From NCBI GenBank assembly GCA_024642625.1, contig JAHEAU010000002.1:1-41909 (forward strand): DNA of 41,909 nt, in the 5' to 3' direction. A program made the translations under genes and the position numbers. Under the pieces are notes generated by a model. It was not told the origin of the DNA, searched no databases, and saw nothing but the letters and a program-made list of their open reading frames with translations. Positions 11,309 to 29,913 of this stretch are shown piece after piece (position 1 is the stretch's first letter; each line of letters opens with the position of its first letter). Origin of the DNA: Lewinellaceae bacterium (lineage in GTDB: Bacteria; Bacteroidota; Bacteroidia; Chitinophagales; Saprospiraceae).

Positions 11309-11478
11309 AGCCGCTTATTCGATTATAGTTTGATTACATCAGGATGTTAACTTCCACATTATATTTTACACTTAGGTTATCGAAAAGTAGAATAATTTAA
11401 ATGAACAACATATAACTTTTTGAATATTCGTCACTTTTTATTAATTTCAAGAGGATATTCCAATAGAAAACTACTAAA

Positions 11479-11673
11479 GTAAACACCCTTGACTGGTTGA
11501 TCAAGTGTCTGATGGAGATCCTCAACCATTCGAACGAGCAGGCTGAGCAACTTTCCAAGTTTGTCCATTTCAAAGGCAAAGCCACTGTCAAAAAGGGCCC
11601 TATCCGCGACCTCAAACCCAAAAGAAGCCTTATCGATCAGGGATTATTGTCGGTGCTGGAGGAGAAGGCATAG
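11479..11673 (+). pseudogene. 5'-truncated duplicate of clpS
   Basis: Sixty-four codons and a TAG stop are homologous to the 3' part of clpS at 8670-8867: VNTLDWLIKCLMEILNHSNE, QAEQLSKFVHFKGKATVKKG, then LIDQGLLSVLEEKA. The copy has several substitutions and a one-codon deletion (KPKRSLID against KPKKDALID) but remains in frame. An in-frame TAG lies just upstream and there is no start codon. The ligand-pocket NDD residues are missing, so it cannot make a working adaptor. Its similarity continues through the downstream terminator. Confidence 0.88.
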
Positions 11674-11695
11674 GGAATCGAATACTTTAGATATA

Positions 11696-11730
11696 GCGCC
11701 CATTAGCAGGAGATGTTCATGGGCGTTTTC
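11696..11730 (+). terminator. Duplicated clpS terminator (degenerate)
   Basis: CGCCCAT (11697-11703) pairs with ATGGGCG (11719-11725), followed by a T-rich tract broken by one C. The loop is the same as in the clpS terminator at 8892-8928, which shows that the duplication included the terminator. Confidence 0.6.
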
Positions 11731-11740
11731 TTTTAAGTCT

Positions 11741-12316
11741 CTACTCCAAATCATCCAGCAACTCGTACTTGGCCTTAATGAGCTTTGAACGCTTGGGTCC
11801 TGCAGGCTCGGTCACCAACTGCCTTTCGATCTCGATGTGCTTGCTTGTGTAGCTAATAAACAATTCTGTCTTTATGAACTAGGATAGCCATGCTGCAAAA
11901 TCAACCAGCTCCTCCTGGTCCTTGTTGTAATCAAAGTGCTTCACCAAATATTCGTACCCTTCGCCATAAACACCTGTTTGAGGAGCCAACCTGGGTTCTA
12001 GCTGAAGGAAGTAATCTAACAAGTATGCATTCGAACAAAAGGTCTCGATCGCCTTATGTCCTGCTAGTTTGAGTCGTTTTGTCTTAAAGAGGGTCACCGT
12101 CCACTCAAAAAAGAAACTGCCGAAAGCGATATCGTCCTAAAAGTTTTTGTGAAACCAGTTGAAATAACGCAACGCACCAGTATAATCCTGCAATTTCAAA
12201 TACAGTTCTGGTGGCGCGTACCGCAAGCTACGGTTGTCAAAATAGCCTCCAAACATCCGTCGTTCGGCTGCCAGAGCATCCTTGATCCGTTTGATCTTGG
12301 TTCTGATCCGTTCTTC
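11741..12316 (-). pseudogene. Decayed conserved hypothetical gene (TPR-like), interrupted by stops
   Basis: One leftward frame gives about 190 protein-like codons ending in ...AKYELLDDLE, interrupted by TAG at 12137-12139 and TAG at 11879-11881, with TAA at 12317-12319 just upstream of the readable part. Recognisable segments are RIKDALAAERRMFGGYFDNR, LQDYTGALRYFNWFHKNF, FFFEWTVTLFKTKRLKLAGH and EELVDFAAWLS. This resembles a tetratricopeptide-like hypothetical protein family of Bacteroidota in which a KNFPDD context is usual; here P is replaced by a stop. The frame is otherwise unbroken, so decay is by point nonsense mutations rather than by indels. The 5' end is not identifiable. Confidence 0.7.
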
Positions 12317-12319
12317 TTA

Positions 12320-12851
12320 TTTTGGTGTTATTCTTGTACAATTTATCTGCTCAAAGCACCACTATTGGTTAGGTTATTTGCCAGTAAAATAGCTATCAAT
12401 ATTTGCATCTAGATATAATGATAGATGAACACATGCGGCTATATTCATTTGCATATAATTCAATAGTACAAAGTGCTGTTCGAGTATAAATACAATCGCA
12501 TTGAATAGAAGATATCAAATCGTGACTGATTTGGGACCTAGCGTGAAGGATTGAGAGTATAGAGTGGTGGGTATTGCCTGCAGGAAGGGGTCTTAGGCGT
12601 TGGGTATTGGGCAAATATTCCTTGGGCCGAGGGCATAAAACTGATATTATGTTATTTCAAACGATATCTGGGCATTGCGCTTTGACGATACCCCGAGCAC
12701 TCGGGCGGATGTCTGGGCCCGGACTGTAAACGCTTGGGTCCTTTTCAAGAAATAATAAAGGAGATTCAGATCGGCCGGCGGAAAGTATGGAATATGCAAA
12801 GAAAATACTCTGTGAAACTCTGTGTCCACTGTGGTTAATCCTACACCTCCC
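12320..12851. other. Non-coding decay region
   Basis: No convincing gene was found. It contains AT-rich sequence, GGGTATTG/GGCGTTGGGTATTGGGC-like short repeats around 12570-12610, a leftward open frame (12647-12829) without family resemblance, and an ACAGAG-type repeat at 12808-12837. Confidence 0.4.
12808..12837 (-). repeat. ACAGAG-type dispersed repeat
   Basis: On the minus strand the sequence reads AACCACAG-TGGACACAGAG-TTTCACAGAG: three spaced CACAG(AG) units. I recall similar CACAGAG-containing intergenic repeats in many environmental bacterial genomes; that memory is not checked. A single copy is seen in this window. Confidence 0.35.
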
Positions 12852-13040
12852 TCACGGAATCAACACATACTCAATATGAAACCCTACTCTTGGGTGGAAA
12901 ACAGAAGATTGGTCAATCCGGGACTAAAAATCAATGAAGAAAAAGGAGGTTGGAAAGCAGACTGCTTCATCCATATCCTGAATAGGAACACTTTGTTGAT
13001 CCATCCCAAACCGTATCTCCGATTCTTACAGTAAATTACC
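12852..13040 (-). pseudogene. 3' remnant of a paralogue of the barrel gene at 25698-26363
   Basis: The leftward frame reads ESEIRFGMDQQSVPIQD, then FFFID, a TAG at 12924-12926, and FHPRVGFHIEYVLIP before TGA. It aligns codon by codon with EPEIKLGVAQHNVTYRN...FFNFQ...LPSVGFHIGYVLIP at the end of the outer-membrane protein encoded at 25698-26363. Bases 12852-12941 match 25698-25787 closely, and similarity continues to about 13040. The CAA codon of the intact gene is TAG here. Only about 60 codons remain, so this is a dead gene end. Confidence 0.75.
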
Positions 13041-13259
13041 CGTCCAACTATTTACATTCGCTTGCAGACTTTAAGGAGTAATCTCACTAGAAGTGCCAAA
13101 CCATTACCGTATGAATGCAAACCAGCGCATCATCAATCACCTCCCTGCTGATAAATCCATAGTTTGGCCAGACATGAAAAGGAGGAACTATTGGTAGGTC
13201 AACATGTGAAACTTTTTGACCCAATTAACATCACTATTGGATTGGCAAATTGAATAACC
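13041..13259. other. Upstream region of the sensor kinase gene
   Basis: About 220 bases without a gene. The only motif noticed is ATTACCC at 13035-13041, the complement of the GGGTAAT half of the motif seen before the regulator and exoprotein genes. No clear promoter was recognised. Confidence 0.3.
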
Positions 13260-16200
13260 ATGAAGTTGCTTTCCATATTTAACAGAAATAACTACAGCAC
13301 AAATACGGCGTCTGAAGTTTTACCAACTAAGGGAACTTGTCGGCTTTCGATGTTTTTTTTATTCCCTGTAGCAGCTTTTATCCTTCTTCCATTTTCATCA
13401 ATAACTGCCCAGGAACGTATTGGTCCATACATGGCCTACTCTTGGCAGATGGGCCTTTCAGGAGGGTTAAACTCGTCCGTCTGCGACTCCCCGGACGGTT
13501 TTCTTTGGATAGCTACCGGCAATGGGTTGATAAAATTTGACGGGCGGCACTACCAACGAATACTGGCTGGTCCCGCCAGTATACCCGATAATGTTTTGAT
13601 GGATGTAGCCACTTCAGCAGATGGCCGAAGCATTTGGATTGGTTCCTTGCGCAGGGGCGTTGCCCGTTTTGATTTGCAGACACAAAAAATCAGATCCTGG
13701 CCAAAACTCTGGAACCACAACAGCCATGTACAAAGCGTACCCAAAATTCTATGCCTCAATAATGGCCAGGTTTGGCTGGCTACTAAAGGCATGGGACTGG
13801 CTTTGTTCTCTCCACAACTTGACAGCTTCCTGTTTTACACACCGGAGCCACAGTCTTTTTACAACGGCGAACCAGATTTGAGTTACAACGTCAAGGATAT
13901 GACTTCCGACCCATCAGACTCAACCAAAATATGGCTGATTTGCAACAACAAAATTTATCAATTCGACACCCGTTTTCGTGAATTCACGCCCTTCCCTTTG
14001 CCGTCAAAAACCAACATCGCCTTGACAAGTATCGCCCACGATGACAAAGACGGCTTGTGGCTTGGTACCTGGGGCGCCAGCATGTTTCACTACAACATCC
14101 GCAACAAGCGGCTCAATGCATTGCCTTATGTTAATGAAAAAGGAGTTTTGGAAAATGGCATGTTGGCCTTAGATGTAGAACAGCTCAATGACACCACCGT
14201 ACTGTGGGCTTGTGCGCTCAGTGGCTTATTGGAATACAACCCGAAGAGCCGCGTTTTTAAACAGGCGATTCCTTCCTTCAAAATAGACCAATCCTCCGAC
14301 AACAGGGTGGAGTTTGTCTCCATTTCAAAGACAAAAAATGCTGGTGTTTTCATCGGGGCAAAGGGAAATCTTTTTCAGCTTCACCCCTATTATTCCCGGC
14401 TGGGTAGAAGCATCTACCCAGCTCCGTGGGCGCCCCAAAATGAAATTTATACTAACAATGGCGTATTCGATAAAGAATCCAAACAATATATTATTCCAAC
14501 AGCTGGCCCACTCAGTTTATTGGCAGTGGAGCAAAGCAGTTTTTCATCGAAAGCTATACCCGTAAAACAACAGGGACCTGGAAAAGGACTTAAAGATCTG
14601 ACCATGCTGGCCTCCGGAAAAATAATCGCACTTGGCTTTGATGGGAAATTGTTGGAATTAAACGCTGTAAAAAATCTAGTTACACCATTAACTTTAAACC
14701 AAACATTAAACACAGCCATTATTGAAATGAAGGTGGATAAAAAAGGGTATCTCTGGCTCCTCACCAAACAAAATCTATTCAGATATGACCCTGCGACATT
14801 AGCTCCAGTTGACAGTTTTTCGTTCCCCAATTTCGAAAACCCACTCGACAAGCCGTTCAACCTTTTAAATCTCTACCAACTTGAAACAACATCCAAAGGC
14901 CATGCCTGGGTGGGCTCCAACCAGGGTCTTTGGTACGCAGAGCCAGACAAACAAAAATTGGTGCTTTTTCACCCCGAAAACAAAAAAGGAAAATGGCTAA
15001 AAGACAAACTCATCAAATCATTGGCAATAGATGAAGAAGACCGTCTATGGGTAGGTTACAACGGCGATGGCCTGGATATTTTTGACACTAAAAAATTTGA
15101 GCCGGTAAACTGGCCCCAGGGCTCTTCCCTGAACGCACAACAAATGAACGATTTGGCGTGTACGCCCGGTGGTTACGTGCTTGCCCCTACCACCGAAGGA
15201 TTGCTCGCAGTAGACCGGAAAACCCTCGACTGGCAGTTGTTTGGCACCGAAGACGGTCTTTTCAGCCAGTTTATGGATAAAGACGTATGGGCCGCACCAG
15301 ACGGAATGGTATTCATCAATCATGGTACGAGGCTGAATATATTCCATGAGTCAGTTCTCGCAATGAAGCATGAACCGATGAAAGTGAACATCCTGCGCTT
15401 TACCGTCAACAATGTAGCGCAAGATTTATCTCATTTTTCGGATAGTGCCAGTTATCTTTCTCTACCCTTTTCCTCTAATAATATTGCCGTTTCTTACTCG
15501 GCCATGCACTGGTTGTATCCATTTAAAACACAGTACATCTACAGGTTTCGCACCGTAAGTGGACATGGGGAATGGGTCTCCATCGAGGAGCCATTTATTC
15601 AGTTAAATGCGCTCCGGCCCGGTCAATATATAATCGATTTGGCAGCAAAAGGTGCTGGTGGAATCCCAAGCCTACCCAAAGTATTGTACCTTGAAATTCG
15701 CTCACCGTTTTGGGTGAAACCTTGGTTTATTCTGCTTTTTTCGGCCTTATTTGGAGGCCTATTTTATACTCTCTACAGATTTAGATTAAACCAATTACGG
15801 AAACAATTAAAAGTCAGGGACATCATTTCCAAGAACCTGCATGACGACATTGGCTCTTCGTTGAGCAATATCCAAATCCTGACAGAATTGGCAAACCGAA
15901 ACCTCGACAACAGAGAAAAAGCGGACAGCTTTCTTAAACGCTCAGGTGAAGACATTCGACGTATCAGTGAGGCCCTGAGTGAAATCGTTTGGAATGTGAA
16001 CCCAAAATATGATGACTTGCAACATCTTTTTGCAAGAATGAGACGCTATGCCGCAGAATCATTCGAAGGTATGGACATCCAGTACAAACTGGATTTTCCT
16101 GAAGAATCAATCAAACTCAAAATGGGTATGGAGCAACGTCGCGATTTTTATTTAATTTTCAAGGAGAGTATCCATAATTTAGTTAAATATTCTGCTGCCA

Positions 16201-16409
16201 GTCTAGCACAAGTCAACGTAGAAATCCACCAGTATTACATTTTACTGGAAGTGAAAGATAACGGGGTTGGATTTTTGAAAAATAACATAAACAATGGTAA
16301 TGGGCTTATTTCCATGCAACAGCGAGCGGAAAAATGGAAGGGGAAATTTATAATAAATAGTGCTCCTGGCCTTGGAACTTCAGTGCAGCTTTCGATGCCG
16401 TTGAAATAG
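13260..16409 (+). CDS. Hybrid-type sensor histidine kinase with periplasmic Reg_prop propeller and Y_Y_Y domain
   Basis: A 1049-residue membrane sensor. After an N-terminal hydrophobic segment (~31-51, ending in ITAQ) comes a large periplasmic propeller with Reg_prop repeats (DGFLWIATGNGLIKFDG, DGLWLGTWG, EDRLWVGYNGDGLDIFD). A Y_Y_Y domain follows at about 750-815, one membrane helix at about 820-840 (PWFILLFSALFGGLFYTLY), and a HisKA_3-type dimerisation region with LHDDIGSSLSNIQIL, phospho-acceptor His861. The HATPase has its N-box near 967-977 (KESIHNLVKYS) and DNGVGF near 999. There is no fused receiver or AraC domain, so it needs the response regulator encoded 57 bases downstream. An alternative start is Met31 at 13350. 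The ligand is probably a polymer or its breakdown product, by family analogy only. Confidence 0.92.
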   Translation: MKLLSIFNRNNYSTNTASEVLPTKGTCRLSMFFLFPVAAFILLPFSSITAQERIGPYMAYSWQMGLSGGLNSSVCDSPDGFLWIATGNGLIKFDGRHYQRILAGPASIPDNVLMDVATSADGRSIWIGSLRRGVARFDLQTQKIRSWPKLWNHNSHVQSVPKILCLNNGQVWLATKGMGLALFSPQLDSFLFYTPEPQSFYNGEPDLSYNVKDMTSDPSDSTKIWLICNNKIYQFDTRFREFTPFPLPSKTNIALTSIAHDDKDGLWLGTWGASMFHYNIRNKRLNALPYVNEKGVLENGMLALDVEQLNDTTVLWACALSGLLEYNPKSRVFKQAIPSFKIDQSSDNRVEFVSISKTKNAGVFIGAKGNLFQLHPYYSRLGRSIYPAPWAPQNEIYTNNGVFDKESKQYIIPTAGPLSLLAVEQSSFSSKAIPVKQQGPGKGLKDLTMLASGKIIALGFDGKLLELNAVKNLVTPLTLNQTLNTAIIEMKVDKKGYLWLLTKQNLFRYDPATLAPVDSFSFPNFENPLDKPFNLLNLYQLETTSKGHAWVGSNQGLWYAEPDKQKLVLFHPENKKGKWLKDKLIKSLAIDEEDRLWVGYNGDGLDIFDTKKFEPVNWPQGSSLNAQQMNDLACTPGGYVLAPTTEGLLAVDRKTLDWQLFGTEDGLFSQFMDKDVWAAPDGMVFINHGTRLNIFHESVLAMKHEPMKVNILRFTVNNVAQDLSHFSDSASYLSLPFSSNNIAVSYSAMHWLYPFKTQYIYRFRTVSGHGEWVSIEEPFIQLNALRPGQYIIDLAAKGAGGIPSLPKVLYLEIRSPFWVKPWFILLFSALFGGLFYTLYRFRLNQLRKQLKVRDIISKNLHDDIGSSLSNIQILTELANRNLDNREKADSFLKRSGEDIRRISEALSEIVWNVNPKYDDLQHLFARMRRYAAESFEGMDIQYKLDFPEESIKLKMGMEQRRDFYLIFKESIHNLVKYSAASLAQVNVEIHQYYILLEVKDNGVGFLKNNINNGNGLISMQQRAEKWKGKFIINSAPGLGTSVQLSMPLK

Positions 16410-16412
16410 GCA

Positions 16413-16431
16413 GTACCCGAATGGGTAATAG
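16413..16431. promoter_or_regulatory. Repeated GTACCCGAA..GGTAAT motif, copy 1
   Basis: GTACCCGAATGGGTAATAG lies between the kinase stop codon and the regulator start. It contains the inverted arms TACCC/GGGTA around GAAT. A close copy is found at 17119-17136, before the exported-protein genes. It may be a binding site for the response regulator or a small RNA hairpin. Confidence 0.4.
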
Positions 16432-16466
16432 AATATCGTTAACCGATGGCGTAGTTTTACGACCTT

Positions 16467-17105
16467 ATGAGCAAACCAAATTTAGTCCTGTTTGAAGATA
16501 ATGAGCGACTCCGGCAGTCGCTGGAATTATTGCTGACCGACATGAGTGGTTTCGAACTAGTAGGAAGCTATGGTGACTTCACTCTGCTGGACGAGGTATT
16601 CGGCAAAACCAGTCCCAACTTGGCCATGCTGGACATTGATATGCCAGGCATGACAGGTATCGCAGCTGTAAAGATTATCAAAGAGCGCTGCCCTCTTTGC
16701 CGGGTCATGATGTTCACAGTATTCGACGACGACGAACGAATTTTTCAGAGCATCTGCAATGGTGCTGACGGTTATATTTTAAAAAATACCTCTCCCCTGA
16801 AAATCATCAAGGCCCTGCAAGAACTTTCAGAAGGTGGAACGCCAATGAGTCCCTTCATTGCCCAAAAAATATTTCAACATTTCAGACAATCCAGTAAAGC
16901 GTCTGACCATAATTTGACCTTACGAGAACAAGATATTCTGAAACTGCTGGTAAATGGCCACAGCTATAAAATGATAGCCGCTGACTGTCATATCACACTT
17001 GATACCGTCAAAAAGCACCTCAAGAATATTTATACCAAACTGCATGTCAACTGCGGCACTGAGGCAGTGGCAAAAGCGCTCAGGGACAGGATTGTCCCAA
17101 TTTAA
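16467..17105 (+). CDS. NarL/FixJ-type response regulator
   Basis: A 212-residue cytoplasmic regulator. The receiver domain (1-~120) has the acidic pair Glu10/Asp11, phospho-acceptor Asp56 in LDIDMPG, Thr84 and Lys106 in YILKNTS. The C-terminal LuxR-type helix-turn-helix (about 148-207) reads LTLREQDILKLLVNGHSYKM then TLDTVKKHLKNIYTKLHV. It follows the sensor kinase by 57 bases on the same strand and is its obvious partner. The kinase is of the HisKA_3 class that normally pairs with NarL-type regulators. Likely targets are the five exported-protein genes directly downstream; this is inference. Confidence 0.93.
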   Translation: MSKPNLVLFEDNERLRQSLELLLTDMSGFELVGSYGDFTLLDEVFGKTSPNLAMLDIDMPGMTGIAAVKIIKERCPLCRVMMFTVFDDDERIFQSICNGADGYILKNTSPLKIIKALQELSEGGTPMSPFIAQKIFQHFRQSSKASDHNLTLREQDILKLLVNGHSYKMIAADCHITLDTVKKHLKNIYTKLHVNCGTEAVAKALRDRIVPI

Positions 17106-17118
17106 TCTGCTGTGACTG

Positions 17119-17136
17119 GTACCCGAAAAGGTAATT
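17119..17136. promoter_or_regulatory. Repeated GTACCCGAA..GGTAAT motif, copy 2
   Basis: GTACCCGAAAAGGTAATT is a near copy of the motif at 16413-16431 and lies 14 bases after the regulator stop codon, about 180 bases before the first exported-protein gene. Inverted arms TACC/GGTA flank CGAAAA. It is a candidate operator or a short hairpin. Confidence 0.4.
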
Positions 17137-17311
17137 GCGGTGCCCATTTTTACCCCCCATCTTTATCACAGAATTTCGATGTAAAGCTCTTCGAAAATTC
17201 TATTGTCTAAAGTTTCTTACGGACAACAAATTCGACCTACAGTTGCAGACGGCACTTTGTAGTCTTACAGTTCTGTTTGTCATTAAAAACTATTTAGAAA
17301 ACTCATCCACT

Positions 17312-17926
17312 ATGAAAAATGTCTTGAAATTCATCACTCTCCTAAATCTAATTGTCCTATTGAACGTGAACCTTGTTTGGACTCAAAACTTGGTGCCAAA
17401 TCCTCAATTTGAAATAAACCGTACGAGTCCCGCAGGCTATTTGTTCAATAACCCACAGATGGAATGTTACCATTCTGGTTGCCTTGATATGGAAAACCTC
17501 TTTCGCTACTCTCAAGCAGAAAACTGGACACTCTGGCTGTGCACTTTAGCGAATAATGCCTGTGTGATGACTGAATTGGTAAAAACAGCAAGCAATTGCA
17601 TACCAGCGGGGCCCAAAGGGTTGAGTGGCAAAATGATGCATGTTAAAACCACATATAGCGGCATGGGGATAGTGAATTCTGACATTCCGGCAGGAAAGAA
17701 TAAGGTGAAAGTCACTTGCTGGGTGTATGTCGTAAAAGGCAAGATTAATATGGGCTATGGGCCGACTGGTGCATCTGTGGTGAACACCTCCTCCAAAACT
17801 AATTGCAAATGGGAAAAACTAGAAATCACTAAAACAGACTCAAAAAGCTGCAATCAAGTGACGCTGTATGCCGATGCGGCAGATGCCGAATCCTACGTCG
17901 ACGCCGTTTCCGTTATAGTCTTCTAA
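17312..17926 (+). CDS. Exported protein, jelly-roll (carbohydrate-binding-like) fold suspected
   Basis: A 204-residue secreted protein. The ATG at 17312 starts a signal peptide (MKNVLKFITLLNLIVLLNVN, cleavage near VWTQ); the frame is open further upstream to 17135, but without signal features. The mature protein begins NLVPNPQFEI, typical of galactose-binding jelly-roll (CBM-like) domains in Bacteroidota, and ends with VTLYADAADAESYVDAVSVIVF, the usual last strands of such domains. About seven cysteines could form disulfides. It is the first of five exported proteins after the two-component genes, 206 bases beyond the regulator. Function unknown; sugar binding is a guess from fold features. 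Confidence 0.65.
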   Translation: MKNVLKFITLLNLIVLLNVNLVWTQNLVPNPQFEINRTSPAGYLFNNPQMECYHSGCLDMENLFRYSQAENWTLWLCTLANNACVMTELVKTASNCIPAGPKGLSGKMMHVKTTYSGMGIVNSDIPAGKNKVKVTCWVYVVKGKINMGYGPTGASVVNTSSKTNCKWEKLEITKTDSKSCNQVTLYADAADAESYVDAVSVIVF

Positions 17927-17936
17927 ATAAACAATA

Positions 17937-18788
17937 ATGAAAATTATAAAAACGGTAATGGCAGCTATGATGGTAATGTTTCCATTTATTGCCACTTTTA
18001 TCCACGCTCAGGGCTCGCCAGACAGCCGTATCTGCAATTGTTTTGCGGAGCCTGTACCAGATAATTTCATGCGTAGCGCAAAGGCATTTTATGGAAGTGT
18101 CGGCCTTGCTCTCAGCCCGAATATCGTATTGCCACCACAGCAAATGCAGCCAGTGAAATTTGTGCTTCCGGTCATCCACTCAAAACAAAGCTGTAGTTCA
18201 TGGTACAGTATCTACATCACAGATGAGGGTAACCGGAAGGTCTATGAGGCGGCTGGTGCAAACAATGAAATCACCTACACATTTCCTGATTGTGGTAAAA
18301 CCTACACTGTGATGCTGATGGCCTATAGCAAGTCCATCAAAGGTGGTGATGGCAATTGTTCGAGACGACTGAACATCACGGTCAAACCAAAGTGCAACAC
18401 CGCTACTTGCGGGTGTGAAGGAACCGGAAAAAGCGCCCCCTACTCTCTCAGTGGTGAGGTACAATGTAAAGAGCGGGCAGGTGATGAATTCAAATACCTA
18501 TTGAGGTTTGATATTGTCAACAAGTCCGATTGCATCCTAGATATCCAGGCTATTACCATTTTTAATCGGGTAATTGAAGTGCCGCCTTATAGTTTAGCAC
18601 CAAAATCCAATCTGAACGGTGTAACCCTTGGTTTTTCCGCTCCGTCAGGCCTTCCAATCACGGAAACAAAAGCGAAAGTATTGATCAAGTATAGCTTGAA
18701 CGGAAGGCGGTGCAGTGATACGTCGGAGTTGCCTTACAAGCATTGCTTCAATACAAATTTTAACCTGCCAAATCGAAATGGCTTTTAA
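17937..18788 (+). CDS. Cysteine-rich exported protein, unknown family
   Basis: A 283-residue protein with a signal peptide (MKIIKTVMAAMMVMFPFIA, cleavage near IHAQ). The mature part is rich in cysteine (about 14, including CNCF, CNTATCGCEG and RRCSD), suggesting several disulfides outside the cytoplasm. It may contain two immunoglobulin-like halves: the first with CSSWYSIYITDEGN and YTFPDCGKTYTVMLMAYSKS, the second with EFKYLLRFDIVNKSDCILDI. No family was recognised and no T9SS domain is present. It lies 10 bases after the previous gene, so it is in the same operon. Confidence 0.7.
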   Translation: MKIIKTVMAAMMVMFPFIATFIHAQGSPDSRICNCFAEPVPDNFMRSAKAFYGSVGLALSPNIVLPPQQMQPVKFVLPVIHSKQSCSSWYSIYITDEGNRKVYEAAGANNEITYTFPDCGKTYTVMLMAYSKSIKGGDGNCSRRLNITVKPKCNTATCGCEGTGKSAPYSLSGEVQCKERAGDEFKYLLRFDIVNKSDCILDIQAITIFNRVIEVPPYSLAPKSNLNGVTLGFSAPSGLPITETKAKVLIKYSLNGRRCSDTSELPYKHCFNTNFNLPNRNGF

Positions 18789-18795
18789 CCAAATC

Positions 18796-18816
18796 GTGGT
18801 CAAATCTTGACCACGA
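18796..18816. repeat. Perfect hairpin between exported-protein genes
   Basis: CGTGGTCAA and TTGACCACG are perfect 9-base arms around ATC in the 46-base gap between two exported-protein genes. It is followed by A residues, not T residues, so it is not a standard rightward terminator. It may be an operator or an mRNA processing or stability element. Confidence 0.5.
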
Positions 18817-18834
18817 AAAATAAACTTTACAACT

Positions 18835-19920
18835 ATGAAAAGTATGACCCTGATTCGTACAGTATGCCTGGTTCTGACAATCCTCTTTTTTACCCAGCCT
18901 GTATTTTCACAAAATCAACCGACAACAAAAACGAGCAAGCCAGTCAAGGCGTCGGAAGATTTAAATAGAAAATCGGAGGAACTTAATAGGAACTCTGACG
19001 CCATTAATCAGCAGACCCAGCAAACGTCAGCAAACATGCAAGCCACTGCTAATAACGTTAAGGCCATCATTAAGGTTTTCGAACCCATTTTGCGTTTACG
19101 ACTAAAAAAACAAGGGACCACTGCATCCGATGAAGGAAATTCAGGACAAAATGACCAAGCAACATGGCCGACGGAAAACACAGACCAACAACCCCAACAC
19201 GAAGGCGAACAGGATCAGTCAGGGAGTGTTGATTACACCTCTGAAGGAAACTCACAGAATATGGGGAGCCAAGAGGTTTATGCGGAAGATATTCTCGCCG
19301 GCATTCCCATTGTCGCTACTGAGGCTGCTTATAATACTGACGGGACAGCCAACCTCGGCAATCAGAACAACCAGAAATACGGCTGCTATTTGGATATCAA
19401 ACAGGGTGGGATTCTGGATGAAGTAGATGCCTCCAGTCAAACCAGGGCAGTAGACATCATTTTTACTGCTACCGACTATTATGGCTCGGCACCTATGTAT
19501 GCCTTACTTACACCTTCTTATGTCAAAAATGACAATTTCTCAAACTACTTTTTCAGAGGCCCAAAATACAAGGACGCCAACATTCCAGTAAAACAGTGGG
19601 AGAAAGTAAACGAAAGCGAGATTGCTTTGACTAGTCTTACACCTGAGAAATTCGAAAAAATAAAGGACAACAGCCAACTCATGGCCGTGGTCAAACAAGC
19701 TGGTACTTTCAAAGACAAATTTGAAAGCCGCACGAAACTCGACGGCAAGATTCTGGCCATTAAAACAGAAATGGGAGACAGGACCGCCTATGGTTTAATC
19801 TATATCGTTTCGCATTATGGCACAACGGGTGAAAATGGCTACTTGAAAATAAAACTCAAAGTCACAGGTTTCGATGCGAATGGAGACGGGAATGCTGACA
19901 GCTATCTCTATTCAAATTAA
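18835..19920 (+). CDS. Exported protein with coiled-coil N-terminus, unknown family
   Basis: A 361-residue exported protein with a signal peptide (SMTLIRTVCLVLTILFFTQ, cleavage near VFSQ). Residues ~38-80 are a probable coiled coil (KASEDLNRKSEELNRNSDAI then QQTQQTSANMQATANNVKAI). A low-complexity acidic/Gln-rich linker (~95-145) follows, then a folded C-terminal domain of ~210 residues with DILAGIPIVATEAAYN, YYGSAPMYALLTPSYV and FDANGDGNADSYLY. The last phrase resembles a calcium-binding DxNxDGxxD loop. I recognise no named family. It belongs to the exported-protein cluster. Confidence 0.65.
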   Translation: MKSMTLIRTVCLVLTILFFTQPVFSQNQPTTKTSKPVKASEDLNRKSEELNRNSDAINQQTQQTSANMQATANNVKAIIKVFEPILRLRLKKQGTTASDEGNSGQNDQATWPTENTDQQPQHEGEQDQSGSVDYTSEGNSQNMGSQEVYAEDILAGIPIVATEAAYNTDGTANLGNQNNQKYGCYLDIKQGGILDEVDASSQTRAVDIIFTATDYYGSAPMYALLTPSYVKNDNFSNYFFRGPKYKDANIPVKQWEKVNESEIALTSLTPEKFEKIKDNSQLMAVVKQAGTFKDKFESRTKLDGKILAIKTEMGDRTAYGLIYIVSHYGTTGENGYLKIKLKVTGFDANGDGNADSYLYSN

Positions 19921-19974
19921 CCCGATTACATCTATCTAAATGAGTTTATCAATTTATCAAAAACACAAATCATC

Positions 19975-20847
19975 ATGAAAAGCAGTTCAATTTCAGCAGC
20001 CAAAGCCTTCTTAATTCTTGCAATCAGTTTTACTTTTTCAGCCCAAGTTGTTGTTGCTTCAACCATAGAAGTTGTCATTTCAACGGGTGGAGATGATTTG
20101 CGCGGCAATGGCAATGGTGCCTATATAACGGTCAATTTTGCGGATGGGACGGCCTCCCCTGAATATGCCTTGGGAGGCGGTTTTGCTAATAACACCACAA
20201 TAACAAAAACGATCAATTTAGTACCAACTATTACAGATTTGAATCAAATAAAAAATATTGTAATGCGTCACAAAGGGAATCCTCGTCCTGGATTTCCAGC
20301 TGATTCTTATGACAAATGGGACTTAAAAGCATTACAAATCAGTGTTGTAATCAACGGTGCCAAGCAAATACTTATCAACGAATCGGGTAATCCTTTGGTT
20401 CGATTTACAGACAAGTTGCGGAGCAGAATATTTACACCTAAAGGTGTTCAGCCAAAGACTTCCACATTGAAGGTCTTTTTGAATACGGGTTCTGATGACT
20501 TGCGTGGCGGCAATAATGCTTACATGACCGTCAATTATACCAATGGAACGACGTCAAATGAATTTGATTTGGGCGGCGGTTTTGGTCAAAATTCCGTGAG
20601 AACAATACCTGTAAATTTGGGCAAAGAATTGACTACTATTTCTGAAATCAAAAGCATCACCATCCGTCACAACGGTAATCCGCGCTCTGGAAATCCATTC
20701 GACAGCTATGAAAACTGGGATTTACAATCCATCCGTGCCGCCCTCATTTATCCTGATGGCGTGGAACGCAATGTGATCAATCTGAGTGGAAATCCACTGG
20801 TCAGGTACACTGGTGATATGCGTACTAAAACATGGCCTCGAGGATGA
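19975..20847 (+). CDS. Exported protein with two tandem PLAT-like repeats
   Basis: A 290-residue protein with a signal peptide (ending near AQVVVAS) and two homologous ~115-residue repeats. Repeat 1 starts STIEVVISTGGDDLRGNGNG and repeat 2 STLKVFLNTGSDDLRGGNNA. Each continues with a GGGF element, then IVMRHKGNPRPGFPADSYDK or ITIRHNGNPRSGNPFDSYEN followed by WDL, and ends in SGNPLVRFT/SGNPLVRYT. The TGxDDLRGxN opening and the WDL element resemble PLAT/LH2-like beta-sandwich domains, which often bind lipids or calcium; that assignment is tentative. The gene is fourth in the exported-protein cluster, 54 bases after its predecessor. Confidence 0.65.
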   Translation: MKSSSISAAKAFLILAISFTFSAQVVVASTIEVVISTGGDDLRGNGNGAYITVNFADGTASPEYALGGGFANNTTITKTINLVPTITDLNQIKNIVMRHKGNPRPGFPADSYDKWDLKALQISVVINGAKQILINESGNPLVRFTDKLRSRIFTPKGVQPKTSTLKVFLNTGSDDLRGGNNAYMTVNYTNGTTSNEFDLGGGFGQNSVRTIPVNLGKELTTISEIKSITIRHNGNPRSGNPFDSYENWDLQSIRAALIYPDGVERNVINLSGNPLVRYTGDMRTKTWPRG

Positions 20848-20970
20848 AACTTTTATCAAAGATGCTAACCCTTGAAGTACAAACAGATCAATACTTCATA
20901 CTCCGAAGCTACAAGTAAAATTTTGAAACAACCAGCATTGATTATTACTATTCGCTACAAAACAATAAAC

Positions 20971-23931
20971 ATGAAACTCTTCCAATTCACGGTGAATATG
21001 TGCGCCCTATGGTGTATGCTTTTCATATTTAGTCCTCAAGCCCACGCAGATATCTGGCGGATCATGCCCGGCCAAGCGAATGATATTGCCATAGGAGCAA
21101 ATGGTCAAATTTGGGCTATTGGAAATGCGCCTACTGGTGGAGGATTCAATATTGTAAAATGGAACGGAACAACCTGGGAAGCAATTGGTGGAGGGGGTGT
21201 TCGCATTGCTGTGGATCCAAAAGGAATGCCTTGGGTCATAAACAATGGTGGGCAAGTATGGCAATGGAATGGCACAACTTGGGTAGCGAGGACGGCAGCG
21301 GGGGCAGCAACAGATATTGGCATTGGTGCTAATGGCCAAGTGTGGATTGTAACATTATCCAGTACACCTGGTGGCTTTAGACTTCAGAGCTTGATTAACA
21401 ACAGTTGGACTAATATTGACGGGGCTGGCAACCGAATTTCTGTAGGTCCGAATGGCCAACCCTGGATAGTGAACAGCAGTGGCCAAATTTACGAACGAAT
21501 AAATGGAAGATGGGATGAAAAAACTGGTTCAGCTACTGACATTAGCGTTGGTGCGAATGGCGTTGTCTGGGTCATTGGCCGAAATGCAGTAGGGGGTAGC
21601 TTCGGTGTACACAGATGGGATGGGAATTCCAACTGGAATACTGTAGATGGAGGAGGCACACAGATTGCCGTTGACCATTTTGGGCGGCCAATTATCACCA
21701 ACCATTTGAAAGAGATTTACAGGAGGGAATATACCCCGACTACTTTGAGTGCAACACCAAGGGTGATTGCAATGAACATGGATTACTATGCAGCAGGACG
21801 TATATCAGCTATTTGCGTTAATCCCAGTAACCCAAACCACGTTATTGTTTCTGGCGAAACAGGTGGGCTTTTTGAAACGACCAATGCCAGAAGCACTACC
21901 CGGAGTTGGACTCATCTGAGAGATTTCGATGAATTCAGTGTAACCGATATACTTATTTTGCCACTTTCGGACGGTGGGTCAGAGGTCTATGTGACTTGCT
22001 CGGATTCATATAAAAACCCCGCTACCCCAACACCACTTATTTATATGCGAAGCGCCAGCGGAGGTAGAAGTTGGACACGGGTTGGATTTTCCGCCAGCAC
22101 CAATATTGCAAAAGAAATAAGGTCAGCCTATCGTCTGGTAAAAAGCAAAACAGATAATACGATTTACGCCGCTGGAAAATTTGGTATCTTTCAAAAACCT
22201 GAAGGGAGTGCAATTTGGAGTAGACTCGGCATGCCCCCAGGTTCAGGTGTAACCGCATTGGAAGCCATGTCAGATGGTACCTTGATAGTTGGAGTAGAAA
22301 GTGGCCTTTCAAGTGGTGTTTACTATTCTCCTGACAATGGGACGCATTGGCATCCTGCTGTCTGCCCTTCGCCACTCCCCAGCTTCAGAAATTCCATTAC
22401 ACAGCGGTTTGCTCTTAAAGCAGATGCTTCCGGTCAAATCGTTATGTTATCCAAATATACGGGTAGTGGTGTACAGCTTTTCGGGTCTGTAGACTATGGG
22501 CGCAGCTGGACTGCATTTAGAAATCAGTGGGGAACGGGATGGGTCGCATCTAGAATACCAGGAGGAGGTGCAGGAGGTTTCGAAAGTATTTTACCCGTAT
22601 TCAATACAAGTAGGAATCGCTTGGAAATTTACGTCTCAAATGCTGAAAATATATTTTATGGATATTCCAGTGGCACAACTGCACAAGCTGCATTGACCAA
22701 TGCATTAAACAACGCCACATTTCCTTGGCAACCTGGCGTAACCTATTCTGGAGGTGTTGGATTCAACGCCGGGCACGAGGATACCCGACAATTGATATTT
22801 TTGGAAGGGACACCCCGAAAAATGGGAATTACTTCGGATGGGGGTATAAGCTTTCAAAATATAACTAGCGACAATCCAGAAACCTTTCCTTGGGTACTTG
22901 AAAACTCCAACACGGGGCTGAATGCCCTTCAAGCTTACAATGTAACCGGCAGTGGACGGGAGCTTTATTTTGGCACCCAGGACAATTCTTACGGATATAA
23001 TAGTAACGGCGATGGGAGGGTATGGTCGGCAGGCGGTGGCAAGGAAGGGTATGTCTTGAACCGTCAGGGAGTTGGCTATGATAATCCATGGACTTTGTAT
23101 GGACTCCAGGCAAATTTTGGAAAAATGACTGGTAATTTCATAGACGTAAACGATTGCTCACCAGCAGGCAGTCCGGGAAGATGGAATGCACCAACAGGCC
23201 CTGGCCGTGGAATTCCAATTTGGTTTGGAGCTGGAATTTACATTCAGGATGATGGCCCAGCTCCTGGTGGAGGTTCTAGCTGGAAAATTACCTATGACAA
23301 TGGTTGCACTTGGAGCAACATGCCAAATTCTACCTTTCCCAGAGGAGCAGGAGAAAAAGCTTTTTTTTCAAGCACTGCCAACAGCCCCTTCAACATGATT
23401 GTGACACTGAATAATAGCGGTACAACAGTTATTGGCCGCTTTGCTAACCCACTGAATACCGATCCAGCCAATACTTGGCAATATCCATCAATGAGCGGGC
23501 TAACCGGTGGCATTGCTGTCGTTGGAAGAGATTTTCTGACTAATCCAGTATTGGCCGTCAACCCTAATGACCCCCAGCACATGATAGCCTGTGAGTCCAG
23601 TACGGGAAAACTTAAAATCATTAGAGCAGGCAGTAGCACATGGACTGAAGTGAGCACATTTACTGCCGCATACGAAGACAGAGGGCGCTATTCTCTAAAA
23701 AGCACAACTGGAAATGTTGGCATTTGGTCAATTGATTTTTCTCCTTACGATCCACAAATCGTACTATTAGGAACAGTGGCAAGAGGGCTTTTTATCTCTC
23801 GTGACGGGGGCAATAATTGGACACGGTTAAATTTTGAAGGCCTCTTTCAACCAACCGACTTTCACTGGAAATCTCCTCAAGAAGTAATTGTTAGCACCAA
23901 TGCACGTGGACTTTTTAGAATTTCATTCTAA
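20971..23931 (+). CDS. Exported tectonin-repeat / Asp-box beta-propeller protein
   Basis: A 986-residue exported protein. The ATG at 20971 opens a signal peptide (MKLFQFTVNMCALWCMLFIF, cleavage near AHAD); an open frame reaches 20872 but is not signal-like. Residues ~28-255 are about six tectonin repeats, with alternating phrases DIAIGANGQIWAIG, RIAVDPKGMPWVIN, DIGIGANGQVWIV, RISVGPNGQPWIVN and DISVGANGVVWVIG. Tectonin propellers are known lectins of innate immunity and of microbes. From ~260 onward there are BNR/sortilin-type Asp-box repeats (SPDNGTHW, SVDYGRSW, TYDNGCTW, SRDGGNNW), probably a second large propeller. It ends GLFRISF with no T9SS domain. It is last in the cluster. Glycan binding is inferred. 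Confidence 0.8.
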   Translation: MKLFQFTVNMCALWCMLFIFSPQAHADIWRIMPGQANDIAIGANGQIWAIGNAPTGGGFNIVKWNGTTWEAIGGGGVRIAVDPKGMPWVINNGGQVWQWNGTTWVARTAAGAATDIGIGANGQVWIVTLSSTPGGFRLQSLINNSWTNIDGAGNRISVGPNGQPWIVNSSGQIYERINGRWDEKTGSATDISVGANGVVWVIGRNAVGGSFGVHRWDGNSNWNTVDGGGTQIAVDHFGRPIITNHLKEIYRREYTPTTLSATPRVIAMNMDYYAAGRISAICVNPSNPNHVIVSGETGGLFETTNARSTTRSWTHLRDFDEFSVTDILILPLSDGGSEVYVTCSDSYKNPATPTPLIYMRSASGGRSWTRVGFSASTNIAKEIRSAYRLVKSKTDNTIYAAGKFGIFQKPEGSAIWSRLGMPPGSGVTALEAMSDGTLIVGVESGLSSGVYYSPDNGTHWHPAVCPSPLPSFRNSITQRFALKADASGQIVMLSKYTGSGVQLFGSVDYGRSWTAFRNQWGTGWVASRIPGGGAGGFESILPVFNTSRNRLEIYVSNAENIFYGYSSGTTAQAALTNALNNATFPWQPGVTYSGGVGFNAGHEDTRQLIFLEGTPRKMGITSDGGISFQNITSDNPETFPWVLENSNTGLNALQAYNVTGSGRELYFGTQDNSYGYNSNGDGRVWSAGGGKEGYVLNRQGVGYDNPWTLYGLQANFGKMTGNFIDVNDCSPAGSPGRWNAPTGPGRGIPIWFGAGIYIQDDGPAPGGGSSWKITYDNGCTWSNMPNSTFPRGAGEKAFFSSTANSPFNMIVTLNNSGTTVIGRFANPLNTDPANTWQYPSMSGLTGGIAVVGRDFLTNPVLAVNPNDPQHMIACESSTGKLKIIRAGSSTWTEVSTFTAAYEDRGRYSLKSTTGNVGIWSIDFSPYDPQIVLLGTVARGLFISRDGGNNWTRLNFEGLFQPTDFHWKSPQEVIVSTNARGLFRISF

Positions 23932-23942
23932 TTCATTCTAAG

Positions 23943-23970
23943 GCCATCACGGAGCATGCCCCGTGATGGC
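23943..23970. terminator. Hairpin between convergent genes
   Basis: GCCATCACGG (23943-23952) and CCGTGATGGC (23961-23970) are perfect 10-base arms with an 8-base loop, lying between the rightward tectonin gene and the leftward hipT gene. T-runs are weak on both strands, but the position suits a bidirectional terminator. Confidence 0.6.
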
Positions 23971-24005
23971 TGTAAAACCCAAATTTAAACTGGCATTAGA
24001 TAAGT

Positions 24006-24950
24006 TCAAATATCCCCTGAAAACAATCGATCATACCGCACCTCCAACAGGTCAATATACTTTTGCTTCATATCCTCCGATAGAAATGATTGCAGAACTA
24101 AACTCATCAACTCTTCTCTTTTATCCCATAAATTTTCCATTTCAACCTTTATGCTCTGCTGAGTTAAACCCATTCTTTCCTTACCATAGTAATCAAATAG
24201 TAGTTTCCTTGATATTTTCTTTTTTTTACCGCCCAGTGGAAGTGCCATTTCTTCCTCGGCGTTCTTCATAGCGATTGTCGAATTGAGCAAATCGTAGGCC
24301 GGGCTTAACTCGATGAGATCATTCCTCATGATCAAGCTGAAATTTTTCAAATGCATATCCTCATTACCTGTAATGAAGCAGAATAGGACTCTTCGAAATA
24401 ATTTACTCTTCTCCAGTTGCGGAAAAGTACAGTTCTGTTCAAGCACCGGAATTAGCTTCTCCATCGACCAATTGTACTTTGTATCCCGATTATTTTCGGT
24501 CAATTGGGCAAAATCTTCAACATGATATTTTTTATTTCTGCTGTACCGATCAAATCGCTTAATAAAATAACTAAAGCTGCCATCCTTTGAATACAGTAAC
24601 CCCGTGAGTGGCACTTCTATTCCGAATATCTTGGCCATCTTCATGGTCAGATCCTCATTTTCAGAGACCTCGGGAAATAGCCCACTTTGTGGTTTTAATA
24701 TAAATGTGCCACCCTGATCTACAATAGTAAAACACTGATCCTTGACAGAAAGAGAAACACTCAACTTGGGTTGCACGCCCTGAATTGACATTCTACCAGC
24801 TCGATCTGCAGCCTCTCGACGTTGTTCAAGTGCAGTAAACGGGAAATCAATCAATGTCGTTAACCGGGAAGACAAGAGATTCAAACCGCGAGAACTATAG
24901 CGGGCATCATCACATGGTTCATAGGTGATGGGACACTTATTCATTTTCAA
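24006..24950 (-). CDS. hipT: HipA-type kinase toxin, HipT-like (short form)
   Basis: A 314-residue Ser/Thr kinase toxin of the HipA C-terminal family. It starts with the short CPITYEPCDD segment typical of free-standing kinase subunits, then MSIQGVQPKLSV (54-65) as the Gly/Ser-rich loop region, Lys86 in FILKPQ for ATP, FIKRFDR, the catalytic loop GNEDMHLKN (195-203) with Asp198 and Asn203, and Asp220 in AYDLL for metal. Classical HipA has ~440 residues because it also contains the N-terminal subdomain, which here is a separate gene. E. coli HipT phosphorylates tryptophanyl-tRNA synthetase; the target here is not known. Its start overlaps the end of hipS by 14 bases. Confidence 0.88.
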   Translation of the reverse strand: MKMNKCPITYEPCDDARYSSRGLNLLSSRLTTLIDFPFTALEQRREAADRAGRMSIQGVQPKLSVSLSVKDQCFTIVDQGGTFILKPQSGLFPEVSENEDLTMKMAKIFGIEVPLTGLLYSKDGSFSYFIKRFDRYSRNKKYHVEDFAQLTENNRDTKYNWSMEKLIPVLEQNCTFPQLEKSKLFRRVLFCFITGNEDMHLKNFSLIMRNDLIELSPAYDLLNSTIAMKNAEEEMALPLGGKKKKISRKLLFDYYGKERMGLTQQSIKVEMENLWDKREELMSLVLQSFLSEDMKQKYIDLLEVRYDRLFSGDI

Positions 24951-25251
24951 TGATTGAAACAGTAACGGCCCCTACCAAATCTGAACCCGTTATAATCAAT
25001 TGGCTAAAGTAGTCGGTCTTGTCAATTTTGTACTTTTTCAGCAAGCCCTCCAATTGAATCCCTTCTGGTAATAAACCATCAAAAAAGGGAGGAAAATGAT
25101 CATAGTTGTATGATTTTTCCGTTCGTGGCATAGTCAAGGATATGGGAGGACCGATATACCCATCGTCATAGTGAAATTCAAAAGAATGGTCTGCTCTTTC
25201 AATGAGTACCCCTGCAATTTCTTCATGCATTTTTACGAGTGCCTTTCGCAT
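24937..25251 (-). CDS. hipS: HipS-like antitoxin (HipA N-terminal subdomain, stand-alone)
   Basis: A 104-residue protein equal to the HipA N-terminal subdomain 1 (Couple_hipA) as a free protein: FHYDDGYIGPPISLTMP, FPPFFDGLLPEG and GSDLVGAVTV are the family landmarks. In the tripartite HipBST system described in E. coli, HipS rather than HipB is the antitoxin that neutralises the kinase. The 5' end overlaps hipB by 29 bases with the ATG at 25251 (or 8 bases with the ATG at 25230), and the 3' end overlaps hipT by 14, so the three genes are translationally coupled. The role is inferred from synteny and domain content. Confidence 0.85.
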   Translation of the reverse strand: MRKALVKMHEEIAGVLIERADHSFEFHYDDGYIGPPISLTMPRTEKSYNYDHFPPFFDGLLPEGIQLEGLLKKYKIDKTDYFSQLIITGSDLVGAVTVSIIENE

Positions 25252-29874: not shown

Positions 29875-29913
29875 CTGCGTGGATCTTATCTGGTTAATGT
29901 TCCCGAGGGGAAT

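What the first reader, a model, noticed from the sequence alone, without database searches (positions are those of the whole stretch)
13260..23931. Sensor kinase, NarL regulator and five exported proteins form one block
Seven same-strand genes over 10.7 kb have short gaps: a Reg_prop/Y_Y_Y sensor kinase, its regulator and five signal-peptide proteins (jelly-roll-like, cysteine-rich, coiled-coil, double PLAT-like, tectonin/Asp-box). None of the five has a T9SS domain and no degradative enzyme is present, so this is not a standard polysaccharide-utilisation locus. It may be a dedicated surface-recognition or matrix system switched on by an external signal. What is seen is the gene order and exported character; the joint function is inference.
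Basis: partly seen in the sequence, partly recalled or inferred. Interest (0 to 1): 0.75.

Follow-up and report, generated by a model that had tools for sequence, protein, structure and literature searches.

The report
Regulator-controlled cassette of exported proteins
A bacterial sensor and its regulator sit beside a set of exported proteins; one of these, of unknown structure and without a match in the protein-family catalogues searched, lay near a sensor-regulator pair in all 18 loci found, while its neighbours are swapped for other binding proteins, peptidases or pore-former-like proteins.

Summary
In detail: seven same-strand genes, 13260-23931: a Reg_prop/HisKA_3 kinase, a NarL-type regulator and five proteins with export leaders. 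Two start codons need correcting. The block is accessory: the four same-genus genomes searched gave no match to A-D. It is still not a chance string of genes. Protein C (18835-19920) has no Pfam or NCBIfam model, yet in all 18 full C loci found (window included) it lies 0.8-4 kb from a histidine kinase with its regulator. The C tree splits once by regulator type (8 NarL, 10 LytTR), while the sensor switches between propeller and TPR three times. B was found only beside C, D is a double PLAT-like fold, and E, a tectonin propeller, also occurs alone. Elsewhere the exported slot holds C39, astacin or M19 peptidases, LGFP repeats, a ricin-type lectin or CDC-like proteins. All eight NarL-type loci have a palindrome at fixed spacing from a TAnnTTTG-type box in the kinase-regulator gap; seven of eight have a second, less perfect copy before exported genes. 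Best reading: an autoregulated two-component switch driving a conserved exported core (C, often B) plus exchangeable cargo. Surface location and purpose remain inference.

The parts
13260..16409 (+). Sensor histidine kinase, 1049 aa: Reg_prop propeller repeats, weak Y_Y_Y, a transmembrane stretch (by eye), HisKA_3 and HATPase_c
   Evidence: (Reg_prop 48.2, HATPase_c 32.3, HisKA_3 25.0 bits)
16414..16428 (+). Candidate operator 1, inverted repeat TACCC-N4-GGGTA in the kinase-regulator gap
   Evidence: one of two exact matches to TACCCGAANNGGTAA in the own genome; the only composite of operator plus -7 box in the window
16452..16459 (+). -7 box TAGTTTTA, 36 nt after the operator arm start
   Evidence: consensus TAnnTTTG from two passages of PMC9723704
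16467..17105 (+). NarL/LuxR-type response regulator, 212 aa
   Evidence: (Response_reg 60.1, GerE 51.6 bits)
17120..17134 (+). Candidate operator 2, TACCCGAAAAGGTAA (imperfect palindrome), before the exported genes; a weak -7-like CATCTTTA at 17158-17165 was seen by eye at the same spacing but not by the pattern
   Evidence: 13 of 15 bases shared with operator 1, reached by 3 of 400 shuffled gap pairs
17312..17926 (+). A: exported 204 aa protein, 8 Cys in the reading, no family; start corrected from 17135
   Evidence: no Pfam family above cut-off; besides own, one weak relative in 148 genomes (G128, 31% over residues 66-201)
17937..18788 (+). B: exported Cys-rich 283 aa protein, unnamed family found only beside C
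   Evidence: 39-48% identical to B of L045-L048; own only of 148; 1 of 324 genomes around Niastella, itself a C locus; no B in the 13 other C loci
18794..18816 (.). 10-pair hairpin between B and C, without a T run on the + strand
   Evidence: listed for the - strand
18835..19920 (+). C: exported 361 aa protein with N-terminal helix-like part, variable linker and conserved C-terminal domain of about 200 residues; the invariant member of the cassette
   Evidence: 18-row alignment A6; 18 of 18 near a two-component pair
19975..20847 (+). D: exported 290 aa protein, two copies (48% identical) of a PLAT/C2-like domain
   Evidence: AlphaFold model of the second copy, mean pLDDT 76.5; Z up to 11.9 to PLAT domains
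20971..23931 (+). E: exported 986 aa protein, N-terminal tectonin propeller plus Sortilin-like repeats; start corrected from 20872
   Evidence: (Tectonin 59.9 bits); tectonin 2, PDB 5fsb, E 8.6e-11; full-length 44% homologue alone in G035
23936..23977 (.). Hairpin directly after E, possible end of the transcript
   Evidence: inverted repeat I8 (arms 81% complementary, no spacer)

Best explanation
An autoregulated two-component switch controls a cassette of exported proteins with a fixed core and exchangeable cargo. The propeller of the kinase senses something in the periplasm or outside (inferred). The phosphorylated NarL-type regulator binds an inverted repeat about 42-44 bp upstream of the predicted transcription start of its own gene, and a poorer copy before the exported genes, raising its own level and switching the cassette on (sites found by sequence comparison; binding and activation inferred). 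The products cross the inner membrane by Sec and are cleaved by signal peptidase I (inferred from their leaders). C is the invariant product and B an accessory tied to C; D (two PLAT domains, lipid- or protein-binding by analogy) and E (tectonin propeller, glycan-binding by analogy) are this genome's cargo, in place of the peptidases, lectins, LGFP proteins or CDC-like proteins of relatives. C follows the regulator type and not the sensor type, so it is more likely the regulator's main output than a co-sensor. Most likely use: acting on envelope or surface glycans and lipids of another cell, or on a polymer the cell meets.
For: Linkage: C is 765-3,969 nt from a histidine kinase in 18 of 18 full loci. 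With measured kinase densities (8 genomes) and the highest of them assumed for the other 10, the product of chance values is 10^-19.5; the loci share ancestry, so this overstates independence. Domains: all 13 TPR kinases and all 10 LytTR regulators are Pfam-confirmed; GerE was checked in 5 of 8 NarL-type regulators, the other three being close in sequence to them. Tree: regulator type changes once on the C tree, support 100/100; sensor type (17 rows, L006 left out) three times. Operator: a strict composite (CAT/ATG or CCC/GGG arms, N4, then TAnnTTT[AG] 33-38 nt on) occurs 9 times in 339,410 nt (both strands) of the eight NarL-type sources; eight are the eight kinase-regulator gaps, one each. 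With the tested locus left out, matrices from kinase-regulator sites rank the regulator-cargo gap site 1, 2, 6, 2, 2 and 17 among 28,776-42,044 positions in six relatives; the reverse test gives 5, 3, 1, 2, 2, 2. Cargo exchange. D fold. Tectonin in E.
Against: The matrix from relatives does not recognise the window's two sites (best ranks 2,080 and 1,744 of 83,786); they are argued from position, geometry and repetition, and G071 has the same CCC-N4-GGG form. With one mismatch allowed, the window's pattern has 6 matches in the own genome against 18 for the reversed-pattern control, so only the two exact matches count. Operator 2 is imperfect; by the pattern, a -7 box at the expected place follows the second copy in only 2 of 7 loci, L046 and L067. 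G071 has no such site before C, which there lies upstream of the kinase. The training positions came from sampling both gap types together, and the composite was drawn partly from the loci it was counted in. No expression, binding or localisation data. C could not be modelled (pLDDT 38.9). A and E are not conserved parts; the four same-genus genomes gave no match to A-D.
Confidence: 0.62

Rival explanations
1. An antagonism or predation kit: C (with B) is a conserved accessory of a weapon system, for example a carrier, anchor, activator or self-protection factor, and the cargo acts on neighbouring cells. The window's PLAT and tectonin proteins would be the target-binding part.
For: Four of ten LytTR-type loci carry CDC-like proteins: Pfam Thiol_cytolysin in L068 (25.1 against 25 bits) and L071 (27.9), with L070 and L074 similar to L068 by BLASTP at 2e-27 and 1.5e-33. 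L071 also has a ricin-type lectin; others carry astacin (L069), C39-like peptidases (L047, L048, L049) and M19 (L067). Bacteroidota CDCLs kill related bacteria and are proteolytically activated (PMC11169675, abstract and outline only).
Against: The window itself has no toxin or peptidase family. Both Thiol_cytolysin hits are close to the cut-off, and L070 and L074 have no Pfam family. Peptidases and lectins also serve feeding. No immunity gene was looked for.
Confidence: 0.3
2. C is a co-sensor or feedback regulator that binds the periplasmic part of the kinase and reports the state of the cassette.
For: Each C lies near one two-component pair; C is the part kept when sensor and cargo change.
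Against: Sensor type switches three times on the C tree while regulator type changes once, unexpected if C must fit the sensor domain.
Confidence: 0.15
3. An ordinary sugar-sensing locus: a Reg_prop kinase detects oligosaccharides and induces glycan-binding proteins for nutrient capture, with enzymes encoded elsewhere.
For: Hybrid two-component systems regulate polysaccharide use in Bacteroides (starts of abstracts; that these carry Reg_prop sensors is recalled); tectonin and E's weak glycosylhydrolase-like hit.
Against: No SusC/SusD and no CAZyme family in the block; 13 of 18 C loci have TPR kinases; cargo elsewhere includes peptidases and pore-former-like proteins.
Confidence: 0.15
4. Seven unrelated genes that happen to lie on one strand beside a two-component pair.
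For: Four same-genus genomes gave no match to A-D; the E homologue stands apart in G035.
Against: 18 of 18 linkage, shared operator, B and D-type domains recurring with C.
Confidence: 0.05

Closest known systems
NarL/LuxR-type and LytTR-type two-component systems
   Same: Kinase plus DNA-binding response regulator side by side, with a palindromic site that suggests autoregulation (shown here for the NarL type only)
   Different: Linked to one unnamed exported family (C) across both regulator types and across sensor architectures
Hybrid two-component / Reg_prop-controlled polysaccharide utilisation loci of Bacteroidota
   Same: Reg_prop (and weak Y_Y_Y) sensor beside exported binding proteins
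   Different: Kinase and regulator are separate genes; no SusC/SusD, no CAZyme family, no T9SS tails in the block
PLAT/LH2 (C2-like) domains of lipoxygenases and pancreatic-type lipases
   Same: Predicted fold of the D domain, Z up to 11.9
   Different: No Pfam PLAT match by sequence; here two copies alone in one exported protein, and joined to other domains in relatives
Tectonin lectins (PDB 5fsb, tectonin 2)
   Same: E residues 26-216 match by sequence, E 8.6e-11
   Different: Joined to a long Sortilin/Asp-box-like region in a bacterial exported protein
CDC-like proteins (CDCL) of Bacteroidota
   Same: Some C loci of relatives carry Thiol_cytolysin-type proteins
   Different: None in the window; C, B and the regulator link were not compared with the published CDCL loci

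Membership tests
Two-component system, NarL/LuxR type | HisKA_3 plus HATPase_c kinase | tested here: met
   HisKA_3 25.0 (cut-off 24.0), HATPase_c 32.3 (26.4)
Two-component system, NarL/LuxR type | Receiver plus GerE DNA-binding domain next to the kinase | tested here: met
   Response_reg 60.1, GerE 51.6; 57-nt gap
Two-component system, NarL/LuxR type | Phosphotransfer and DNA binding | not testable with these tools
   needs biochemistry
Polysaccharide utilisation locus | SusC/SusD pair and CAZymes in the block | tested here: not met
   no such family in the seven proteins
Hybrid two-component system | Kinase and regulator fused in one protein | tested here: not met
   separate genes
T9SS cargo | C-terminal sorting domain | tested here: not met
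   A-E: none at E up to 1 in Pfam or 0.1 in NCBIfam; the same kind of scan finds below-cut-off Por_Secre_tail matches in nearby genes 10505-11308 and 28291-29874
PLAT/LH2 domain | PLAT fold | tested here: met
   predicted model of the second D copy
PLAT/LH2 domain | Match to the curated Pfam family | tested here: not met
   no PLAT hit for D at E up to 1
Tectonin | Curated Tectonin domain | tested here: met
   59.9 bits against 30
C family of this report | C-terminal domain similarity and a histidine kinase within 4 kb | tested here: met
   18 of 18; in L074 the regulator is 6.2 kb away; a 19th hit (G686, N-terminal coiled coil only) was excluded and has no pair in the 19.5 kb read
CDC-like antibacterial locus | Thiol_cytolysin/CDCL protein in the locus | tested here: not met
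   none in the window's seven proteins; present only in relatives

The most novel reading that the evidence does not exclude
C defines an undescribed class of Bacteroidota export cassettes: a two-component pair of changeable sensor and regulator type, bound to one invariant exported protein family that serves as shared carrier, anchor or activator for exchangeable effectors (pore-former-like proteins, peptidases, lectins, PLAT and tectonin binders), deployed against other cells.
Probability: 0.3. Interest if true: 0.82.

Novelty: new variant of a known kind. Interest (0 to 1): 0.62.

Why it matters
It turns an unremarkable string of hypothetical proteins into a testable regulon: one unnamed exported family, near a two-component pair in all 18 loci found, with a candidate operator of fixed position. 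If C is the shared handler of swappable effectors, it would be a marker for finding more secreted weapons or feeding tools in poorly known Bacteroidota, and the operator would reveal what each sensor controls.

Tried and rejected
AlphaFold for C with 8 aligned sequences failed (mean pLDDT 38.9), so no fold claim is made; the cap left no second try with the later 18-row alignment. A PDB sequence search with the B alignment returned mainly short repeat matches to designed 'Pizza' propellers, with no stretch passing on its own except one weak hit (E 1.8); discounted. A had no PDB match up to E 5. The matrix from relatives did not find the window's operators; kept as evidence against. The sigma-70-type promoter scan was near its shuffles (33 found, mean 27.3, sd 5.7) and is the wrong promoter type for this phylum. 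A scan for exact 6-7-nt palindrome arms gave a hit in only some gaps. The G103 hit to D (37% over 54 residues) was looked at once and the G128 hit to A not at all. The C hit in G686 was dropped as coiled coil only. The iterative D-domain search took in weak first-round hits from a small set (whole-protein E 1e-5 to 4e-4); its far members (341-353 aa proteins of L045-L048, the 551 aa protein of L047) are tentative. Literature: searches listed no paper whose title or abstract start describes this system; only open-licence PMC papers are searched, so this is weak evidence of absence. Papers seen: PMC11169675 and PMC5837995 abstract and outline; PMC9723704 two passages; all others listing only. 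NarL heptamer knowledge and lipoprotein rules are recalled, not tested.

Full report
What is there. The window holds seven + strand genes from 13260 to 23931 with short gaps. The kinase (1049 aa) has Reg_prop repeats, HisKA_3 and HATPase_c above cut-off and a below-cut-off Y_Y_Y. The regulator (212 aa) has receiver and GerE domains. Five proteins follow, called A-E here. A and E need their starts moved to 17312 and 20971, where leaders begin that look like signal peptides. A-D have no family above cut-off in Pfam or NCBIfam; E has a tectonin domain and below-cut-off Sortilin similarity. None has a T9SS tail in those scans or a lipobox by a simple pattern. No signal-peptide predictor was run; by eye the leaders of A, B and C end in T-Q, A-Q and S-Q, as the Bacteroidetes Q-rule for signal peptidase I substrates would have it (PMC5837995, abstract). 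So the proteins are very likely exported, but nothing here places them on the surface. A hairpin follows E.

Where the genome sits. The window is contig 66 of a 3.6-Mb draft genome. G071, of the same family by the tool's labels, holds a 23,202-bp contig that matches in length and ORFs the contig titled uncultured Saprospiraceae (L049), so the window is most likely from Saprospiraceae (inference).

How conserved. In 148 genomes, the own one counted, at E 0.001: A in 2 (own, weak G128), B in 1 (own), C in 2 (own, G071), D in 2 (own, a 54-residue match in G103), E in 28, of which one besides own is full length (G035, 44%) (for E at most five candidates per genome were scored). The kinase at E 1e-60 is in 2 (own, a partial match in G028). 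The four same-genus genomes have no match to A-D; two of them show short E matches. G035 has no match to B, C or D, and no kinase model hits within the 28 kb read around its E. The block is therefore accessory, and E at least can live apart.

C as the anchor. A scan of named genome contigs with C found six loci, one of them G071's own contig. A class sample of 395 genomes gave G258 besides own. A sample of 324 genomes of the family of the Niastella genome gave 12 with a match: the known one, ten new, and one (G686) that matches only the N-terminal coiled coil. Reading the neighbourhoods, all 18 full C genes, window included, have a kinase and a regulator nearby: kinase 765-3,969 nt away, regulator 24-6,192 nt away, by longest reading frames; the kinase is on the same strand in 11 and divergent in 7. 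G686 has no pair in the 19.5 kb read. The chance product is 10^-19.5, with the caveats that the loci are related and that kinase density was measured in only 8 of 18 genomes. Domain labels were confirmed in Pfam for all 13 TPR kinases, the four propeller kinases, all 10 LytTR regulators and 5 of 8 NarL-type regulators.

Which part C follows. In a tree of 18 C proteins, the 8 beside NarL-type and the 10 beside LytTR-type regulators separate with support 100/100, one change. The sensor (17 rows; G071 left out, its kinase having neither type) changes three times between TPR and Reg_prop propeller. C thus keeps company with the regulator type and not the sensor type, which favours C as the regulator's main product over C as a partner of the sensor.

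B and D. B is found in the window and L045-L048, each time near C, and in none of the 13 other C loci; in the sample of 324 it occurs once, in the known C locus. The D domain, two copies here, has a predicted PLAT/C2-like fold (mean pLDDT 76.5) with Z up to 11.9 against lipoxygenase PLAT domains and clostridial alpha-toxin C-terminal domains, and up to 9.8 against lipase domains. A shared fold shows no function. D-type domains recur in L046 and L050 clearly, and in L045, L047 and L048 tentatively.

Exchangeable cargo. Relatives carry in the same slot Peptidase_C39-like proteins (L047 just below, L048 just above, L049 well above cut-off), DUF7452 (L049) and LGFP (L053); Peptidase_M19 (L067), astacin with LGFP (L069), LGFP (L072), TIG repeats (L069), a ricin-type lectin joined to a Thiol_cytolysin match (L071), and a Thiol_cytolysin match at the cut-off (L068). 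L070 and L074 have no Pfam family but resemble L068 and L071 by BLASTP. Two LytTR loci (L075, L076) show C next to the pair with no further exported gene recognised, and a Cys at the leader end that suggests a lipoprotein (by eye).

The switch. In the kinase-regulator gap of all eight NarL-type loci lies an inverted repeat with 3-nt arms and a 4-nt spacer, CAT/ATG in six and CCC/GGG in the window and G071, followed 35-37 nt after the arm start by TAnnTTT[AG]. This strict composite occurs nine times in 339,410 nt (both strands) of those eight sources: eight are these gaps; the ninth is in G071 at L006:7076-7121 (-), before a further gene. The TAnnTTTG box lies at -12 to -5 (PMC9723704 passages), which puts the repeat centre near -42 to -44, the usual place of an activator that overlaps the promoter (established knowledge; inference here). 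In six relatives a like repeat also lies between the regulator and the exported genes: matrices trained on one gap type and tested on the other, with the locus left out, rank it 1-17 among 28,776-42,044 positions (L050's cargo site was not used for training, and the training positions came from sampling both gap types together). That sampling scored 276 against 159-170 in 8 mononucleotide shuffles. By the pattern a -7 box at the expected place follows the cargo-side copy only in L046 and L067; L045, L047, L048 and the window have near misses by eye, L050 none there. In the window the second copy at 17120 shares 13 of 15 bases with the first; 3 of 400 dinucleotide shuffles of the two gaps reach that, and these are the only two exact matches to the shared pattern in the own genome, although with one mismatch the pattern (6) is rarer than its reversed control (18). 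Against: the relatives' matrix does not see the window's sites, and G071 lacks a copy before C.

Verdict. The better description is a regulator-controlled cassette with C (and often B) as core and swappable exported cargo. Regulation is supported by comparison but untested; surface location and purpose are open. Given pore-former-like proteins and peptidases in relatives, action on other cells is the boldest reading not excluded; for this copy, with PLAT and tectonin proteins, binding is all that sequence supports.

Noticed in passing
window 24006-25251 (- strand): HipA-like gene in two overlapping ORFs: HipA_C (158 bits) and Couple_hipA (82 bits), directly after the block.
   Followed up: partly
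window 11309-13259: 1.95-kb stretch upstream of the kinase without a listed ORF of 100 aa or more, G+C 41.5% against 44.0% in the block.
   Followed up: no
window 28291-31566 (- strand): DUF1501 and DUF1800 proteins side by side; the DUF1501 protein has a below-cut-off Por_Secre_tail match, as does 10505-11308.
   Followed up: no
L006:7076-7121 (- strand): A ninth composite operator plus -7 box in G071, before a small gene downstream of the regulator; may extend the regulon.
   Followed up: partly
L075:8751-9464 and L076:9386-10186: Short C proteins with a Cys at the leader end, likely lipoproteins, next to a LytTR pair: the smallest form of the cassette seen.
   Followed up: partly
L068:10497-12509, L070:5071-7098, L071:6537-8693, L074:10667-12595: CDC-like proteins next to C in LytTR-type loci, one joined to a ricin-type lectin.
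   Followed up: partly
L050:9168-9920, L047:11785-12543, L047:10896-11741, L067:10685-11326: Another recurring exported family in these loci; Pfam scans found no family for L050, L067 and one L047 copy and only below-cut-off hits for the other.
   Followed up: no
window 16467-17105 against the regulators of L045-L050 and L067: The recognition-helix region differs between the window (TVKKHLKNIY) and relatives (TVRSHIKKIY or similar), alongside the different operator arms.
   Followed up: partly
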